In this document: piece by piece, positions 6,083 to 15,489 of the stretch
How the letters are laid out: the number at the start of each line of letters is the position of its first letter
Numbering within the stretch: position 1 is the stretch's first letter
Source: an uncultured Gilliamella sp.
GTDB lineage: Bacteria > Pseudomonadota > Gammaproteobacteria > Enterobacterales > Enterobacteriaceae
Reading direction: 5' to 3'
Length of the DNA stretch: 38,585 bases
Assembly: GCA_945291235.1 (NCBI GenBank)
Contig: CALYQY010000008.1
Coordinates: 1-38,585, forward strand
The notes under the pieces: model-generated
Database searches by the model: none
Seen by the model: only the letters and a program-made list of their open reading frames with translations
Told to the model about the DNA's origin: nothing
Position numbers and translations under genes: made by a program

Positions 6083-9000
6083 ATGTTATCTCAACAGCAA
6101 ATTAAATTTCTAGAATCAATGACTTTCTTAGACAAGCATAAAATATTGAAGCTTGCTAAGAATAATCAAGATCTAGCAAAAATCAATTTAGCGGTAACTC
6201 AAGCTGTTTCACATTATCATGCAAGATTGACGTCTTTACCTGCACAGATTGAATATCCGTCTAATTTACCTGTGGCTGAAAAAAAATCAGAAATTTACCA
6301 TGCGATTCAGCAGCACCAAGTGGTAATTATTGCAGGTGAAACTGGTTCCGGTAAAACAACACAAATTCCTAAAATCTGTTTAGAATTAGGTTTAGGTGTA
6401 AAAGGATATATTGGACATACCCAACCAAGGCGGCTTGCAGCCCGTTCTGTCGCCAATCGCATAGCGGAAGAGTTAAATACCGAAATAGGGCAGTTAGTCG
6501 GTTATAAAGTCAGATTTTCTGATCAGGTTAGTGATACCACATTGATAAAATTAATGACTGATGGCATTTTGCTGGCTGAAATTCAAAAAGATAAACTTTT
6601 ATTGCAATACGATACTATCATTATTGATGAAGCTCATGAACGTAGTCTTAATATTGATTTTATTTTGGGATATCTGAAACAATTGTTACCTAAACGCCCT
6701 GATTTGAAAGTGATCATAACGTCTGCAACCATTGATGTTGAGCGATTTTCTAACCATTTTAATCATGCGCCTATTATAGAAGTATCTGGAAGAACCTATC
6801 CTGTCGAGGTACGATATCGTCCGCCAATATATGATAACGAAGATGATAAAGAGATTAACAAAAATAGTGATTTTCAACCTATCATTGATGCAATTGATGA
6901 GTTATCTAAAGAGAATTCAGGTGATATTTTAATATTTTTAACTGGTGAGCGAGAAATACGTGATTTAGCCGATACACTAAACAAGCTTGAATTACGTCAT
7001 ACCGATATATTACCGTTATACGCTAGGTTATCTGCTTCCGAGCAAAACCGTATTTTTCAACCACATTCTAAACGACGCATTGTGCTTGCTACCAATGTAG
7101 CGGAAACTTCATTAACCGTACCCGGAATTAAATATGTCATCGATCCTGGATTGGCCAGAATAAGTCGCTACAGTTATCGAACTAAAGTTCAACGTTTACC
7201 GATTGAACCTATATCGCAGGCTTCAGCTAATCAACGAAAAGGTCGATGTGGACGTACTTCAGATGGTATTTGTATTCGTCTTTATGATGAACAAGATTTT
7301 TTATCTCGCCCTGAATTTACCGCCCCTGAAATCTTACGTACAAATCTTGCTTCTGTCATATTACAAATGACATCGTTAGGTTTGGGTGATATAGCTGCTT
7401 TTCCTTTTGTCGAGGCTCCCGATTCAAAATATATTCGTGATGGAATTCGTTTATTAGAAGAACTTGGTGCCATATTCACCAAGCATCATCAATACCATTT
7501 AACTCAAATAGGCAAAATTTTGGCACAATTACCGATTGATCCTAGATTAGCCAGAATGTTAGTTGAAGCAAGACGATTAGGTTGCACTAAAGAAGTTATG
7601 ATAGTAACCGCAGCGTTGTCAATTCAAGACCCAAGAGAACGCCCTTTTGATAAACAACAGGCTTCAGATGAGAAGCACAAACGTTTTGCAGATAAAGATT
7701 CAGATTTTATTTCTCTTATTAATTTATGGAATTATATTCAAGAGCAACAAACCCTGTTATCGGGTAATCAGTTTAGAAAGTTATGCCCGAAAGAGTATTT
7801 GAATTATCTCCGCATTCGTGAATGGCAAGACGTCTATACTCAAATTCGTCAGACCATTAAACAATTATCTTTTCCAATCAATAGTCAACCCGCAGATTAT
7901 CGATCATTACATGTGGCTTTATTAAGTGGTCTACTTTCACATATTGGTTTAAAAGAGATTGAAAGAAACGAATACCTTGGTGCTCGAAATATCAAGTTTG
8001 CCATTTTTCCAAATTCAGTGTTATTTAAAACTCAACCTAAATGGTGCGTTGCCAGTGAGCTTGTTGAAACCAGCCGACTATGGGGTAGAACAGTAGCTAA
8101 AATTGATGCAGAATGGATTGAACCCATAGCTAAACATTTAGTGAAATACAGCTATAGTGAACCTAGGTGGTCAAAAAAACAGGGCACTACAATTGCAAAT
8201 GAAAAAGTGACATTATTTGGATTGCCTATAGTCCAAAATCGAATTGTAAATTACAGCCAGATAGATCCTGTGTTATCCCGTCACTTTTTTATAAGACATG
8301 CTTTGGTAGAAGGGGATTGGATTACTAATCATAAATTTTATAAACTAAACCAAAAGTTGATTAATGAAGTCGAAGATCTTGAACACAAATCCCGTCGTCA
8401 AGACATTTTAATCGATGATGATCAGTTATTTGATTTCTATGATCAGCGTATTGATAAATCAATTGTTTCAGTTAAACATTTTGACAATTGGTGGAAGCAA
8501 AAGCAAAAAACTTCACCTGATTTTCTCAAATTTGAAAAACAGATGTTAATTAACCAATCAGCACAATTGATTGATTTAACTCAGTTCCCTGATTATTGGT
8601 ATCAAGATCAATTCAAACTGCCTCTTAATTATGAGTTTGATTTAGGTAATAACCGTGACGGTGTCACTGTTAGAATTCCTATTGATATATTGAATCAAAT
8701 CAAAAATGATGGATTTGACTGGCAAGTACCCGGTTTTAGAAAAGAATTGATAGTATCCCTTATTAAATCATTACCTAAGTCTTTACGGCGCAGTTTGGTT
8801 CCTGCACCTAATTATGCTGAAGCATTCTTAAGTAGAGTAACATCGATCAAACATCCGTTACTTGAAACATTAGAGCATGAATTTCGAAAAATGACAGGGG
8901 TTCAAATTACTCATGAGGATTGGCAGTGGGATCAAGTTCCAAATTATTTAAGAATTACCTTTAGCATTATAGATAATCAAGGTAATGAAATTGCTCATGG

Positions 9001-11132: not shown

Positions 11133-11846
11133 TCAGTTACCTAAACTTATTAGCGCATTTAAATTTTTAATAAAAATATATCTGCCTTTAACGTGTAAAA
11201 TATCTTGTTCTTGTAGTTTCGACAAAATTCGGCTAACAGTTTCAATCGTTAAACCTAAATAATTTGCTATATCACTACGGCTCATAGATAACTTTATGTT
11301 TAGTGATGTGTGACCACGATTTTCATATCTTCTATAAAGAGAATATATAAAATAGGCTAGGCGTTCATCAGCCTTTTTCTGAGAATAACATAAAATTAAT
11401 TTTTGATAGTTATAAATGTCATTACTTAATAACCTAAATATCATGCTTCTGACACAAGCATTTGATTCAACTAAAGACATTAGTTCTTCATAACGCAATT
11501 CACAAGCTAAAGTATTAGTAAGCGCTTTAATGTTGTTATTATATATTTTAGTTGATATAGAATCCAGTCCAACAATATCACCAGGTAGATAAAAGCCATT
11601 AATCTGTTCTTTATTGTCTGATGTTGTAACATAGGTTTTTACAGCACCAGAATGAATAATAAAAAACCGAGTAAAATCAGTGCTCTTGGATACTATGAGT
11701 TCATCTTTAGCATAAGTCTTTTTACGTTCCAAAACATTATTTAAAGTATTATTTAATAACATTGGTAGACATAAAGAGCCTATACTGCATAATTCGCAAG
11801 GAACTGAATAACTTTTTGATCGTATATTCTTATTGGTAGTTTGCAT
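11133..11846 (-). CDS. fnr: FNR-family oxygen-sensing regulator
   Basis: A CRP/FNR-family regulator of 237 residues. The four [4Fe-4S] ligand positions of FNR are present: C17, C20 and C26 (CELCSIGSLC, same spacing as E. coli C20-C23-C29) and C115 (LACELRYEE, equivalent to C122). A cyclic-nucleotide-type beta roll covers about 40-125, a dimer helix about 130-165, and the helix-turn-helix 188-211 has IETVSR with E202, S205 and R206, the residues that read TTGAT half sites in E. coli. It should switch genes to anaerobic metabolism. Sequence is clearly more diverged from E. coli FNR than its neighbours are from their homologues, and it lacks the E. coli C-terminal tail, so a paralogue is possible. 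Shine-Dalgarno weak. Confidence 0.85.
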   Translation of the reverse strand: MQTTNKNIRSKSYSVPCELCSIGSLCLPMLLNNTLNNVLERKKTYAKDELIVSKSTDFTRFFIIHSGAVKTYVTTSDNKEQINGFYLPGDIVGLDSISTKIYNNNIKALTNTLACELRYEELMSLVESNACVRSMIFRLLSNDIYNYQKLILCYSQKKADERLAYFIYSLYRRYENRGHTSLNIKLSMSRSDIANYLGLTIETVSRILSKLQEQDILHVKGRYIFIKNLNALISLGN

Positions 11847-12452
11847 AATAAATTAATCATTAATCCAAGTTCAGTTCTAGCCAAGAGTAACATATTTTTA
11901 TGATAAAACAACAATTGGCCAATTCATATAGTTTAAATTATTAATCAACAAAACGTTCATTTAGTTTAAATTAACAGAAGGCAAGCATTAAAATAAGCAT
12001 AATAATGAAAAGTATTAATAGGTGTTAGCAATTATATACTAAAGATAATCGATTTTATATTATGATATTGACTATCACTCTAAAAGGTTAAATTACGGTT
12101 TGATCTGATAGTTAAAGAACTTTTAATCAATTTTGAATTGAAAGTAGGGTTTAGCAAAACGGAGATATAACTGAAAATCATTTTAAGTTCGTAATAATGA
12201 TTGTATTTAACATAATATACATTATCCAAATCTTATCCAATTGATTAAAAACAATAAAATCTAAATTTTTTTTCATTCATATGGCTACTTAATGTTCATG
12301 AAGAATAGGGCGTTATATAAGATTTATAAGTAGAAAATTAAATCTAGTTCAATGATTTATAATTACGAATTTAAGTTAATTTTTTTAAAATTCACTTATT
12401 AATAATAATTATTAATTTATTATAGAATACCCAACTGGCTAAATACAATCCG
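11847..12452. other. Gene-free AT-rich region upstream of fnr
   Basis: No credible coding frame. Elements I see: a 12-bp palindrome AATTGGCCAATT at 11913-11924; a 12-bp direct repeat TAGTTTAAATTA at 11929-11940 and 11962-11973 (33 bases apart), both possible operators in the fnr promoter region; and a minus-oriented dif-like site at 12205-12232 (separate entry). No clear TTGATNNNNATCAA FNR box was found. Confidence 0.5.
12205..12232 (-). other. dif-like XerCD site 1 (minus orientation)
   Basis: Read on the minus strand the 28 bases are arm GATTTGGATAA, centre TGTATA, arm TTATGTTAAAT. The last two parts are identical to E. coli dif (XerD arm TTATGTTAAAT, centre TGTATA). Only two bases, both in the XerC arm, differ from the second site at 13295-13322, which lies in the opposite orientation. 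It may be the chromosomal dif, or an attachment site left by an XerCD-using phage. Confidence 0.8.
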
Positions 12453-12671
12453 TTAAATCATAAAAAATAAGCCTTTATGTTTACCATCAAAAAAGACAAG
12501 TACAATAAATATTATGATAACAGCCAAAATAATTCTAAATTTTCTTTTTTTAAAAAGTTTTTCAATCTTGTTATTTAGATAAGTTCTATCAACATAACTC
12601 ATACATAATATCAAAATAACCAATAAAATAGCTATTGGAACAGCTAAAACCATATCATTATTAATTGTCAT
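12453..12671 (-). CDS. Small two-helix membrane protein, unknown
   Basis: A 72-residue hypothetical protein with two hydrophobic segments (about residues 7-26 and 46-62) separated by a very basic loop (NNKIEKLFKKRKFR). By the positive-inside rule both ends should face out with the loop in the cytoplasm. Not recognised. It lies between the two inverted dif-like sites, next to a phage replication remnant, so it could be phage or cargo material; small two-helix proteins also occur as toxins or phage coat-assembly proteins. The ATG has only a weak GAG upstream. Confidence 0.4.
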   Translation of the reverse strand: MTINNDMVLAVPIAILLVILILCMSYVDRTYLNNKIEKLFKKRKFRIILAVIIIFIVLVFFDGKHKGLFFMI

Positions 12672-12828
12672 ATTTTTGTTTAACTCATTATCTATATCTA
12701 ACTATAAATGCAATTACCCGGAATCCTTTTTCTTAAAAATAATTGAAACGGTTATCGTAAAATCACTGTCAAAATTACCAAACCTTAAAACGATTTAATC
12801 AAAATCCTAATCCTAAATAATAATGTAA

Positions 12829-13253
12829 CATTTATTATCTAGAACGCATAACAAAATTCATACAGATATGTTTTCACATTATTGGGGATTATCAAACTAT
12901 GAACGATTAAATGAATTACATGATGAATTTTTGTATTTAGATAAAAAACTGGGGATTTTGAAACTATCAGCGAACAATTAATAAGGTGTAGCGTAGTAGA
13001 AACCACACGTTCAGCAAATACTAATGCAATGTATGCGATTCAATGGGCGCATGGACAAACATTTGATTTTAACAAATCACAGGTTCAAATACACAGAGCA
13101 CGTTTGAGAAAAATCGGCATTGATATAGCACAGCGTTGCAATCTGGCAAAATTTAGCCCGATTTCTGTTCGAGAAATCCGACAGGTTACGGTATCTGATT
13201 GTCCAATTCCTGATTGGTACAAAATGCCACAGATATTTAAATTAGCGTCGTAA
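12829..13253 (+). pseudogene. Remnant of a phage replication initiator (II/X-like)
   Basis: Two adjoining plus-strand frames read as one protein end. Frame one (open from 12829, ATG at 12868) gives MFSHYWGLSNYERLNELHDE and FLYLDKK. A one-base loss in the G run near 12951 moves to a second frame: GDFETISEQLI, then VHRARLR-type text QIHRARLRKIGIDIAQRC, ending SDCPIPDWYKMPQIFKLAS. The (R/K)ARLRKIGIDI block and the PDWY-near-C-terminus are hallmarks of the C-terminal part of filamentous-phage/plasmid replication proteins (gene II/X family; f1 pII ends PDWYNEPVLKIA). The N-terminal catalytic part is missing. The last 75 codons (ATG 13029) are open but alone would not make a working initiator. Ends 42 bases before a dif site. 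Confidence 0.65.
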
Positions 13254-13294
13254 ATTGGTTAGCTGAATGATGAAAATTCACGTACGTTTATCGT

Positions 13295-13322
13295 GATGCG
13301 GATAATGTATATTATGTTAAAT
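13295..13322 (+). other. dif-like XerCD site 2 (plus orientation)
   Basis: Arm GATGCGGATAA, centre TGTATA, arm TTATGTTAAAT. Compared with E. coli dif (XerC arm GGTGCGCATAA, then the same centre and XerD arm), 26 of 28 positions agree. This is the better dif candidate in the window. The neighbouring genes (fnr, ydgH, rlhA, htpX, hslJ) have E. coli homologues in the terminus half of the chromosome, which fits a chromosomal dif location. Confidence 0.88.
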
Positions 13323-13542: not shown

Positions 13543-15489
13543 TTATTTAGATATGAAAATAATTTCGCTTCCTGACAATGGCATTTTTAAAACATGATTT
13601 TTAATTTTACCCCAAACTTGCATTTCACATGCTTTACAGTTAAATTTCAAAATGAGCTCTTCATTATTATTTTGTATTAATTTCATTGGTGTGACTTTTG
13701 TTTTGACACCTTGAATACCTTTAGCTTGTTTCGGACATAAATTGAACGCAAATCGCAAACAGTGTTTTGTTATCATCAAAGGAACATCATCTTTAATTTC
13801 ATGAGCTTCATATGCGCTTTCTATTAATTGAACACCATGTTGTTTATAAAACTCACGGGCTTTATGATTATAGACATTAGCTAAATAAGTTAATTGATTA
13901 TCGGGATAAATTGGTTTTGGGTTAGTTTCAGGCTTACGCTTATTGGTTTGGTAGCTTGCTAACCTTGCTGAAGTTAATTTTTCAATAATGTCTCGTCTTA
14001 ATTGATTAAGTTGACTGCTGGGAATAAAATAAATTATCGATAAATCGATAATAAGCTCAGACAAATAATAAATAGTTTGCCCAAGTTTAGATAGATTATC
14101 TTGAATATTTTTTAACGCTTTATCAGTTTGATTCGCCAAATCAAATTGACCAATCAGATCTAATTCGACACAAATACCCTCCTCACTTTTGGCTTTCAAC
14201 TGAATTCCATTATCGATATTAGACAACACAAACGAAACACCAATACGACGAACGCTTGAATCTTTGAGTAAGTTTTGTTGCCATAAATGATCTAAATTAC
14301 GATTAACAATAAAAGGCAATTTGATGGTATTAAGCGATTTAGGAATTTCATTAGGATAAACCCGATATTGATTAGCACCTAATTTATCGACTTTATCTGC
14401 TCGAAATCCAAACACTTCTCGTTTAATGAGGACATTTAGACCATCACCATTAGTTAACATTTTTTCAGATTTAATATCAATATACTGAGCGGTTACATTA
14501 GTTATTTCACCAATTTGTAATCCAATAAATTTTGGCGACTCAAAAGCACCAATGTCAGGTTTTCGACCAGTAACAAAATAGTCTGTATTACCACGGTTAA
14601 ATGTTCGTTTGGGATCTGGTGTAAAAAAGTATTCTGTTTTGCCACTAGAAGCAGCCGTTAAATTCGATGAATTTGAAAGGATGTTATCCAATTTTTGTCG
14701 ATAATGTGCAGTAATATTTTTTACATAAGTTAAATCTTTATAACGCCCTTCTATCTTAAACGATCTTACACCAGCTTGGATTAGCGATTCTAAATTATCT
14801 GATTGATAATTGTCTTTCATCGATAACAAATGCTTTTCGTAAGCAACAACACGTCCTTGATCATCTTTTAAAGTAAAAGGCAATCGGCAAGCCTGTGAGC
14901 AATCTCCACGATTAGCACTACGCCCAGTTTGCGCATGTGAAATATAGCATTGCCCGGAAAAAGCGACACATAACGCACCATGAATAAAAAACTCTATTTT
15001 TGCATCTATTTGCTTAAAAATAGTCGTAATTTCATTTAAGTTTAATTCACGTGCTAATACAATTTGCGAAAAACCAACATCGGATAAAAACTTTGCCTTT
15101 TCTGGCGTTCGAATATCCATTTGCGTACTGGCATGTAAGTCGATTGGTGGAATATCTAAATTTAAAATACCCATATCTTGCACGATTAACGCATCGACGC
15201 CTGCATGATAGAATTGCCAAATTAATTGTCTTGCAGATTCTAATTCATTATCATGAAGAATCGTATTTAACGTAACAAAAACTTTAGCGTAATAACGATG
15301 TGCAAATTCAACTAATTTTGCAATATCACTAACCGAATTTCCTGCATTATGACGAGCGCCAAAACTAGGCCCGCCTATATATACAGCATCTGCACCATGT
15401 AAAATTGCCTGCATCGCAATTTCAATATTTTTTGCAGGACTTAGTAATTCTAATTGGTTTTTATTCTGATATTGATCCATCTGTGACAT
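13543..15489 (-). CDS. rlhA: 23S rRNA C2501 hydroxylation protein RlhA (peptidase U32 family)
   Basis: RlhA (formerly YdcP), a U32-family protein needed for 5-hydroxycytidine at position 2501 of 23S rRNA in E. coli. It has 648 residues (E. coli about 650-670). The N-terminal U32 barrel has ELLSPAKNIEIAMQAILHGA (12-31) and HGALCVAFSGQCYISHAQTG, with cysteines C174, C181, C197 and C201 in the region that holds an iron-sulfur cluster in relatives. The C-terminal DUF3656/collagenase-like part ends with ITKHCLRFAFNLCPKQAKG and KFNCKACEMQVWGKIKNH. The length excludes the short relatives TrhP/YegQ and UbiU/UbiV. Single-gene unit driven by a strong promoter at 15542-15570. Confidence 0.94.
   Translation of the reverse strand: MSQMDQYQNKNQLELLSPAKNIEIAMQAILHGADAVYIGGPSFGARHNAGNSVSDIAKLVEFAHRYYAKVFVTLNTILHDNELESARQLIWQFYHAGVDALIVQDMGILNLDIPPIDLHASTQMDIRTPEKAKFLSDVGFSQIVLARELNLNEITTIFKQIDAKIEFFIHGALCVAFSGQCYISHAQTGRSANRGDCSQACRLPFTLKDDQGRVVAYEKHLLSMKDNYQSDNLESLIQAGVRSFKIEGRYKDLTYVKNITAHYRQKLDNILSNSSNLTAASSGKTEYFFTPDPKRTFNRGNTDYFVTGRKPDIGAFESPKFIGLQIGEITNVTAQYIDIKSEKMLTNGDGLNVLIKREVFGFRADKVDKLGANQYRVYPNEIPKSLNTIKLPFIVNRNLDHLWQQNLLKDSSVRRIGVSFVLSNIDNGIQLKAKSEEGICVELDLIGQFDLANQTDKALKNIQDNLSKLGQTIYYLSELIIDLSIIYFIPSSQLNQLRRDIIEKLTSARLASYQTNKRKPETNPKPIYPDNQLTYLANVYNHKAREFYKQHGVQLIESAYEAHEIKDDVPLMITKHCLRFAFNLCPKQAKGIQGVKTKVTPMKLIQNNNEELILKFNCKACEMQVWGKIKNHVLKMPLSGSEIIFISK

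What the first reader, a model, noticed from the sequence alone, without database searches (positions are those of the whole stretch)
12205..13322. Two dif-like XerCD sites in opposite orientation, 1.1 kb apart
Both sites keep the full XerD arm (TTATGTTAAAT) and centre (TGTATA) of E. coli dif. They differ from each other at two bases, both in the XerC arm. One is on the minus strand (12205-12232) and one on the plus strand (13295-13322). A normal chromosome has one dif. Two inverted copies would let XerCD invert the 1.1 kb between them, as in plasmid pdif modules, or they may be the two ends left by a phage that integrated through XerCD (IMEX). Which one serves chromosome-dimer resolution is open; the plus copy is closer to enteric dif (26 of 28).
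Basis: partly seen in the sequence, partly recalled or inferred. Interest (0 to 1): 0.9.

Follow-up and report, generated by a model that had tools for sequence, protein, structure and literature searches.

The report
Invertible twin dif at chromosome terminus
In bee-gut Gilliamella and some relatives, the site where cells untangle doubled chromosomes exists as two mirror-image copies around a short stretch of DNA that appears to flip, whereas related bacteria normally have a single copy.

Summary
In detail: two inverted 28-bp dif sites, 12205-12232(-) and 13295-13322(+), none expected by chance. The window is Gilliamella. In a complete relative the pair sits at the GC-skew/KOPS switch, so it is the chromosomal dif. 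It is widespread: an inverted pair was read in 28 of 35 genomes of the genus and 4 of 9 others of the family. With one pattern, 15 of 22 family genomes but 0 of 273 others of the order match on both strands. One site is canonical (the plus copy here). The other has a degenerate XerC arm, yet centre and XerD arm are 98% identical between genomes, and a perfect IHF consensus adjoins it in 20 of 32 rows (the window 8 of 9 bases). Orientation differs between close species; three assemblies hold both orientations. Inside lie decayed filamentous-phage replication genes. Best reading: a dif-integrating phage left a second inverted site, and XerCD now inverts the module between. Closest known: Acinetobacter pdif C modules, CTXphi integration, the L. 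bulgaricus dif pair. XerCD causality, phage origin and function are inferred.

The parts
12205..12232 (-). second dif site: degenerate XerC arm (GATTTGGATAA), perfect centre and XerD arm
13295..13322 (+). canonical dif (GATGCGGATAA-TGTATA-TTATGTTAAAT)
   Evidence: relatives
12234..12246 (-). IHF-like site AATCAATTGGATA, 8 of 9 specified bases of WATCAANNNNTTR (consensus recalled); 9 of 9 at one of two fixed places beside the second site in 20 of 32 rows
   Evidence: control
12186..12199 (+). AGTTCGTAATAATG, XerC-arm-like half site 5 nt outside the XerD arm of the second site; possibly the fossil XerC arm of an older phage junction
   Evidence: element present at the second site in 16 of 28, at the canonical site in 0 of 27
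12945..13253 (+). remnant of filamentous-phage replication protein (G2P_X_C, gpII/X C-terminus), stops 41 nt before the canonical dif
   Evidence: Pfam PF05155 E 1.5e-22, PHROG 702 E 2.2e-24
12453..12701 (-). 82-codon open frame (stop to stop), hydrophobic; also open in G001, G009, G032; no Pfam match above cut-off
11133..11846 (-). FNR/Crp-family regulator gene; its 5' end faces the pair
   Evidence: 100% identical to Gilliamella wkB308 and two MAGs
13543..15489 (-). U32 peptidase gene, 3' end faces the pair

Best explanation
This is the chromosomal dif of Gilliamella in a doubled form. A canonical dif and a second, inverted dif-like site enclose a small module with the XerC arms inside. The second site most likely came with a filamentous phage that integrated at dif through host XerCD in an ancestor; later phages of that kind integrated at the canonical site and decayed inside the module. 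Because centre and XerD arm stay alike in both sites, XerCD (activated by FtsK at the terminus) can recombine them and invert the module. Shown: the pair, its place at the terminus in a relative, phage remnants, orientation differences, both orientations in three assemblies, core conservation. Inferred: that XerCD rather than RecA does the inverting, that the second site is phage-derived, and that it is kept by use.
For: Terminus: in complete genome G005 (40 stretches of 20 kb, a third of it) cumulative skew peaks at 0.84-0.96 Mb and GGGNAGGG flips (6+/0- left, 1+/6- right to 2.2 Mb); the pair is at 0.99 Mb. Distribution. Inversion: G013 and G024, close on the tree, have opposite orientation; at least 4 orientation changes on a 43-row tree. 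G004 joins the same 1388 bp of U32 flank to the canonical site in one contig and to the second site in another; its fnr and U32 flanks share only 13 bp. G007 has fnr-canonical and U32-canonical, but over a 135-bp flank repeat. Core: centre + XerD arm pairwise identity 0.98 among 28 second sites, against 0.40 just outside and 0.55 just inside; centre identical within the genome in 27 of 27, including G024 where both are TCTATA. XerD and FtsK-gamma in 12 of 12 genomes searched. Precedent: inversion between inverted pdif sites with identical spacers was seen experimentally in an Acinetobacter plasmid (PMC13141974, abstract and passages). Phage: G2P domains; G025 has a phage inserted at the XerC arm of an older canonical site.
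Against: No read-level or bench evidence of inversion; contig structures can mislead, and the three mixed assemblies are drafts. In the window's own clade the TTATT[AG]CGAAC element lies on the fnr side together with the second site (window, G009, G026; also G001, G032), whereas it is on the U32 side in the other genomes that have it, so at least one swap there had a breakpoint outside dif, which XerCD alone would not give. One clade of 7 is all in one orientation. Published CTXphi attP1/attP2 keep a good XerC arm and a bad centre/XerD arm (PMC3089051, passages), the opposite of the second site here, and no parent phage was found. G028, G029, G040, G043, G044 have one dif only. The G005 skew is noisy and the KOPS counts are small.
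Confidence: 0.66

Rival explanations
1. Fold-back repair or template switching at the terminus, plus RecA recombination, makes and inverts the pair; XerCD inversion plays little part. Breaks at the terminus fold back on the dif inverted repeat and copy flank DNA outward, as proposed for L. bulgaricus.
For: Exact outward inverted repeats of 10 to 1113 bp beyond the XerD arms in 12 of 26 pairs (27 rows, G011 left out because its 1023 bp is a contig path; 285 bp in G003 confirmed), and 86 bp in G037. G002, G014, G031 and G037 have two identical sites inside longer inverted repeats. The flank swap in the window clade fits breakpoints outside dif. PMC5345009 describes two opposite dif sites within 38-76 kb terminal repeats and a fold-back rescue model (abstract and passages).
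Against: In G011 the flanks share 1 bp and in G004 13 bp beyond the 21-bp core, short for RecA exchange (general knowledge), yet both orientations appear. It does not explain the IHF consensus beside only the second site.
Confidence: 0.22
2. Inert phage scar: the second site is a fossil of a filamentous phage and does nothing; orientation differences are old accidents and contig artefacts.
For: G2P remnants; XerC-arm-like element outside the second site; decayed contents.
Against: Core of the second site far more conserved than its flanks, centres matching within each genome, pair read in 28 of 35 genomes.
Confidence: 0.08
3. A phase switch: inversion moves a promoter or regulator site to or from fnr, whose 5' end faces the pair.
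For: fnr starts 358 bp from the XerD arm in the window and about 130 and 160 bp in G019 and G004.
Against: fnr lies beside dif also in single-dif genomes; much of the module differs between genomes; no promoter analysis was done.
Confidence: 0.04

Closest known systems
Acinetobacter plasmid pdif (dif) modules, C type
   Same: Two inversely oriented XerC/XerD sites with XerC arms internal; [quoted passage not shown]
   Different: Here on the chromosome, at the dimer-resolution site itself, one small module with the rest of the chromosome in the D place; no shared cargo; second site degenerate in the XerC arm, with IHF consensus
IMEX / CTXphi-type filamentous phage integration at dif
   Same: Filamentous-phage rep genes next to the canonical XerC arm; G025 shows a phage inserted at dif with a long-centre left junction like CTXphi attP1 (PMC3089051 passages)
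   Different: The second site has a perfect centre and XerD arm and a poor XerC arm, the reverse of CTXphi attP1/attP2; phages decayed
Lactobacillus delbrueckii bulgaricus terminal inverted repeat with two opposite dif sites
   Same: Two chromosomal dif sites in opposite orientation at the terminus, inverted repeats around them (PMC5345009, abstract and passages)
   Different: There repeats of 38-76 kb in one subspecies; here sites 0.17-2.5 kb apart, 14 of 26 pairs with under 10 bp of exact outward repeat, in three genera by the tool's grouping
Single enteric-type dif of the order
   Same: Sequence, terminus location in G005, XerD and FtsK-gamma present
   Different: 0 of 273 genomes of the order outside the family have core matches on both strands; two (G116, G307) have two matches on one strand

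Membership tests
chromosomal dif | 28-bp XerC arm - 6 - XerD arm site | tested here: met
   plus copy 26 of 28 to recalled E. coli dif
chromosomal dif | location at skew/KOPS switch | tested here: met
   one-third sample of relative G005; the window's own genome is not held
chromosomal dif | XerC, XerD and FtsK gamma domain in host | tested here: met
   XerD model and FtsK_gamma over cut-off in 12 of 12 relatives; XerC inferred from a second strong hit (272-290 bits) to the XerD model in each; no XerC model was run
chromosomal dif | single copy | tested here: not met
pdif C module | inverted sites, XerC arms internal, same spacer | tested here: met
pdif C module | carried on a plasmid with alternating C and D modules | tested here: not met
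   chromosomal in one-contig genomes such as G005; one search listed no third site in the stretches of up to 6 kb each side, many of them cut by contig ends
pdif C module | XerCD-dependent inversion | tested here: inconclusive
   both orientations in 3 of 35 assemblies; recombinase dependence untested
CTXphi-type integrated element | filamentous-phage genes next to dif | tested here: met
CTXphi-type integrated element | attP1/attP2 with good XerC arm, long or odd centre, poor XerD arm | tested here: not met
   second site has the reverse pattern; only the phage remnant in G025 looks like it, by eye
L. bulgaricus-type terminal repeat | dif pair inside a very large inverted repeat | tested here: not met
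   exact outward repeats 0-1113 bp; window 1 bp

The most novel reading that the evidence does not exclude
Gilliamella and related Orbaceae use a two-site dif: a canonical dif and an inverted, IHF-associated partner kept by selection as a working part of chromosome resolution, for instance so that a XerD arm faces the incoming FtsK from either replichore, or so that XerCD can make a harmless local inversion instead of joining monomer sisters.
Probability: 0.28. Interest if true: 0.92.

Novelty: new variant of a known kind. Interest (0 to 1): 0.78.

Why it matters
Inverted chromosomal dif sites are expected to complicate dimer resolution (stated for L. bulgaricus in PMC5345009). A genus that carries them as the rule, with signs that they flip, is a natural experiment on how XerCD/FtsK copes with site orientation, on how dif-integrating phages reshape the terminus, and on how terminal inverted repeats arise. 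It can be tested in culturable bee-gut symbionts.

Tried and rejected
Own genome: not held, so skew and KOPS were tested on relative G005. Rep of the G025 phage: no pattern match in viral contigs; in annotated phages 55 records, all under 60% identity, best 50.8%, so no parent phage was found. Second site as attP2 of the G025 phage: rejected by eye, different sequence. Chance origin: rejected. IHF consensus by composition: perfect match, either strand, in 18 of 27 inner stretches of second sites, 0 of 27 inner canonical, 0 of 27 outer second-site, 2 of 27 outer canonical (window and G032); chance 1.2% per 45 bp. Of 5 single-dif genomes, G029 has a perfect match inside and G044 one outside its dif. 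Contig ends alone as proof of inversion: dropped, because in G003 a true 285-bp repeat explains the break, and shared contig ends may do so in G020 and G021. The GATTTTA count led nowhere. Whether inversion is frequent could not be judged: only one genome per species is held. Papers: listings 28, 29, 54, 55, 56, 63, 64 and 65, seen as titles and abstract beginnings, showed no report of an inverted dif pair in Gilliamella or Orbaceae; searches returned nothing. The library holds open-licence papers only. Passages of PMC3025954 mention two dif only for Vibrio species and for dif in phage genes.

Full report
OBSERVATION. They share the 6-bp centre and XerD arm and differ at two XerC-arm bases. 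None of 100 shuffles of the window contains one. XerC arms face inward; 1062 nt lie between the arms of the 29-nt inverted match.

HOST AND PLACE. The window's FNR protein is 100% identical to that of Gilliamella sp. wkB308 and two Gilliamella MAGs. The pair lies between fnr (11133-11846, minus) and a U32 peptidase gene (13543-15489, minus). The window's genome is not held. In complete relative G005, sampled as 40 stretches of 20 kb out of 2.40 Mb, cumulative GC skew peaks at 0.84-0.96 Mb, GGGNAGGG changes from 6+/0- to 1+/6- (small counts), and the pair is at 0.989-0.991 Mb. So the locus is the replication terminus there and the site is the chromosomal dif; for the window this is inferred from shared gene order. 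XerD, FtsK-gamma and three IHF/HU-type genes were found in 12 of 12 relatives searched.

DISTRIBUTION. Of 35 genomes of the genus, an inverted pair was read in 28 (in G012 the second site is cut by a contig end, and in G022 the two sites are on two contigs). G020 has two contigs that each begin with the core; G028 and G029 have one site; G018 has fnr and U32 about 170 bp apart with a XerD-arm remnant only; G021 is broken at the place; in G033 and G034 (86 and 74% complete) the flanking genes were not found. Of nine other genomes of the family, G037, G038, G039 and G041 have a pair, G040, G043 and G044 one site, G036 a contig beginning at the core, G042 no match at up to 3 mismatches. Control: 295 genomes of the order searched for the 21-bp core with up to one mismatch. 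Of these, 273 lie outside the family, 199 of them match, none on both strands, and two (G116, G307) have two matches on one strand; of the 22 in the family 15 match on both strands (rows read by eye). A second site with two or more core mismatches would be missed by that control.

ANATOMY. I called the site with the better XerC arm canonical: it has C and G at positions 5 and 6 in 27 of 27. The other is degenerate. Among 28 second sites, pairwise identity is 0.98 over centre and XerD arm, 0.72 over the XerC arm, 0.55 just inside and 0.40 just outside; 23 of 28 have the perfect 17-mer (the pairs with two identical sites, G002, G014, G031 and G037, and truncated G012 were not in this count). Centres agree within the genome in 27 of 27; in G024 both are TCTATA, and in G041 both XerD arms end AAC. 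The second site has an IHF consensus (WATCAANNNNTTR, recalled) abutting or overlapping its XerC arm: 9 of 9 specified bases in 20 of 32 rows examined, 8 of 9 in 7 including the window, fewer in 5, three of which are pairs with identical sites. With both strands allowed it is perfect in 18 of 27 second sites and 0 of 27 canonical sites; outside the canonical site it is perfect in 2 of 27, one of them the window. Seven or eight bases outside the second site's XerD arm, TTATT[AG]CGAAC is present in 16 of 28, against 0 of 27 beside canonical sites; background 6 in 236,018 strand-bases of loci that include some of these places. Read the other way it resembles a XerC arm with one extra base. It is absent in the three g3 genomes.

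CONTENTS. The shortest modules have sites 165-167 bp apart start to start (G004, G008, G013, G019, G024). Longer ones hold decayed filamentous-phage rep or other DNA. In the window a 102-codon frame matches G2P_X_C (E 1.5e-22). G025 has a 324-residue stretch with both G2P domains, in a phage remnant inserted at the XerC arm of an older 165-type module. In window, G006 and G025 (Pfam) and in G005, G027 and G039 (recognised by eye) the rep end points to the canonical site.

INVERSION. With fnr as reference the canonical arm is on the fnr side in some genomes and on the other side in others. On a tree of FNR plus YdgH (43 rows) the fewest orientation changes is 4, with mixed, identical-site and broken rows left out; G013 and G024 are close and differ, while a clade of 7 is uniform. 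Three of 35 assemblies hold both orientations. G004: the same 1388 bp of U32 flank follows the canonical site in C1 and the second site in C7, while fnr and U32 flanks share 13 bp. G011 (contig length as wkB178): second site to U32 in C11, second site to 1023 bp of fnr flank in C13. G007 (contig length as App4-10): canonical next to fnr in C8 and next to U32 in C44, but across a 135-bp flank repeat, so weaker.

OUTWARD REPEATS. Beyond the XerD arms 12 of 26 pairs have exact inverted repeats of 10 bp or more (10 to 1113 bp), the window 1 bp. By coordinates G031's contains about the last half of the U32 gene. Such exact repeats suggest recent copying of one flank to the other side. This, and the swapped flank element in the window's clade, says that more than XerCD acts here. 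Fold-back repair as proposed for L. bulgaricus (PMC5345009) or breakage of wrongly joined sisters would do it.

MECHANISM. Inversion between opposed pdif sites with equal or nearly equal spacers was detected in Acinetobacter (PMC13141974, abstract and passages). The Gilliamella module has that geometry (C type), equal spacers, and the proteins. The step from geometry to XerCD-dependent inversion is inferred. Phage origin of the second site is inferred from the rep genes, the XerC-arm-like fossil and the conserved inner end; its arm pattern is unlike CTXphi attP1/attP2 (PMC3089051, passages).

NOVELTY. Inverted chromosomal dif pairs are known from L. bulgaricus, XerCD modules from plasmids, and dif phages from Vibrio. 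A family-restricted, widely kept, apparently flipping dif pair with an IHF-marked partner did not appear in listings 28, 29, 55, 56, 63, 64 and 65.

Noticed in passing
L074 6254-8005 (G030), inside the module: A 584-codon LamB-porin frame without stops lies between the two dif sites, the longest frame among the modules listed.
   Followed up: partly
L167 around fnr-U32 (G018): fnr and U32 are about 170 bp apart with only a XerD-arm remnant; elsewhere only four 2-mismatch hits to the 17-base core. A real loss of dif or an assembly gap.
   Followed up: partly
L047 about 6590-6640 (G004, U32 flank): A palindrome built of two opposed XerC-arm-like sequences, possible fossil of a further integration.
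   Followed up: no
L075 (G031), 1113 bp on both sides of the pair: Exact inverted copy of about the last half of the U32 gene on the fnr side of dif in a one-contig genome.
   Followed up: partly
L073 6001-6028 (G029): Single dif whose XerC arm is itself overlapped by a perfect IHF consensus, hinting that the IHF site may be older than the second dif.
   Followed up: no
module of G016/G017: Aca2/YdiL-like open frame between the dif sites (G017 copy searched).
   Followed up: no
G037:C1:544791-546001: Two FtsK-gamma matches about 1 kb apart, the second in a frame with stops.
   Followed up: no
window, just outside 13322 on the U32 side: A perfect IHF consensus (AATCAATAAATTA) lies outside the canonical dif in the window and G032 only, against the otherwise second-site-only pattern.
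   Followed up: no
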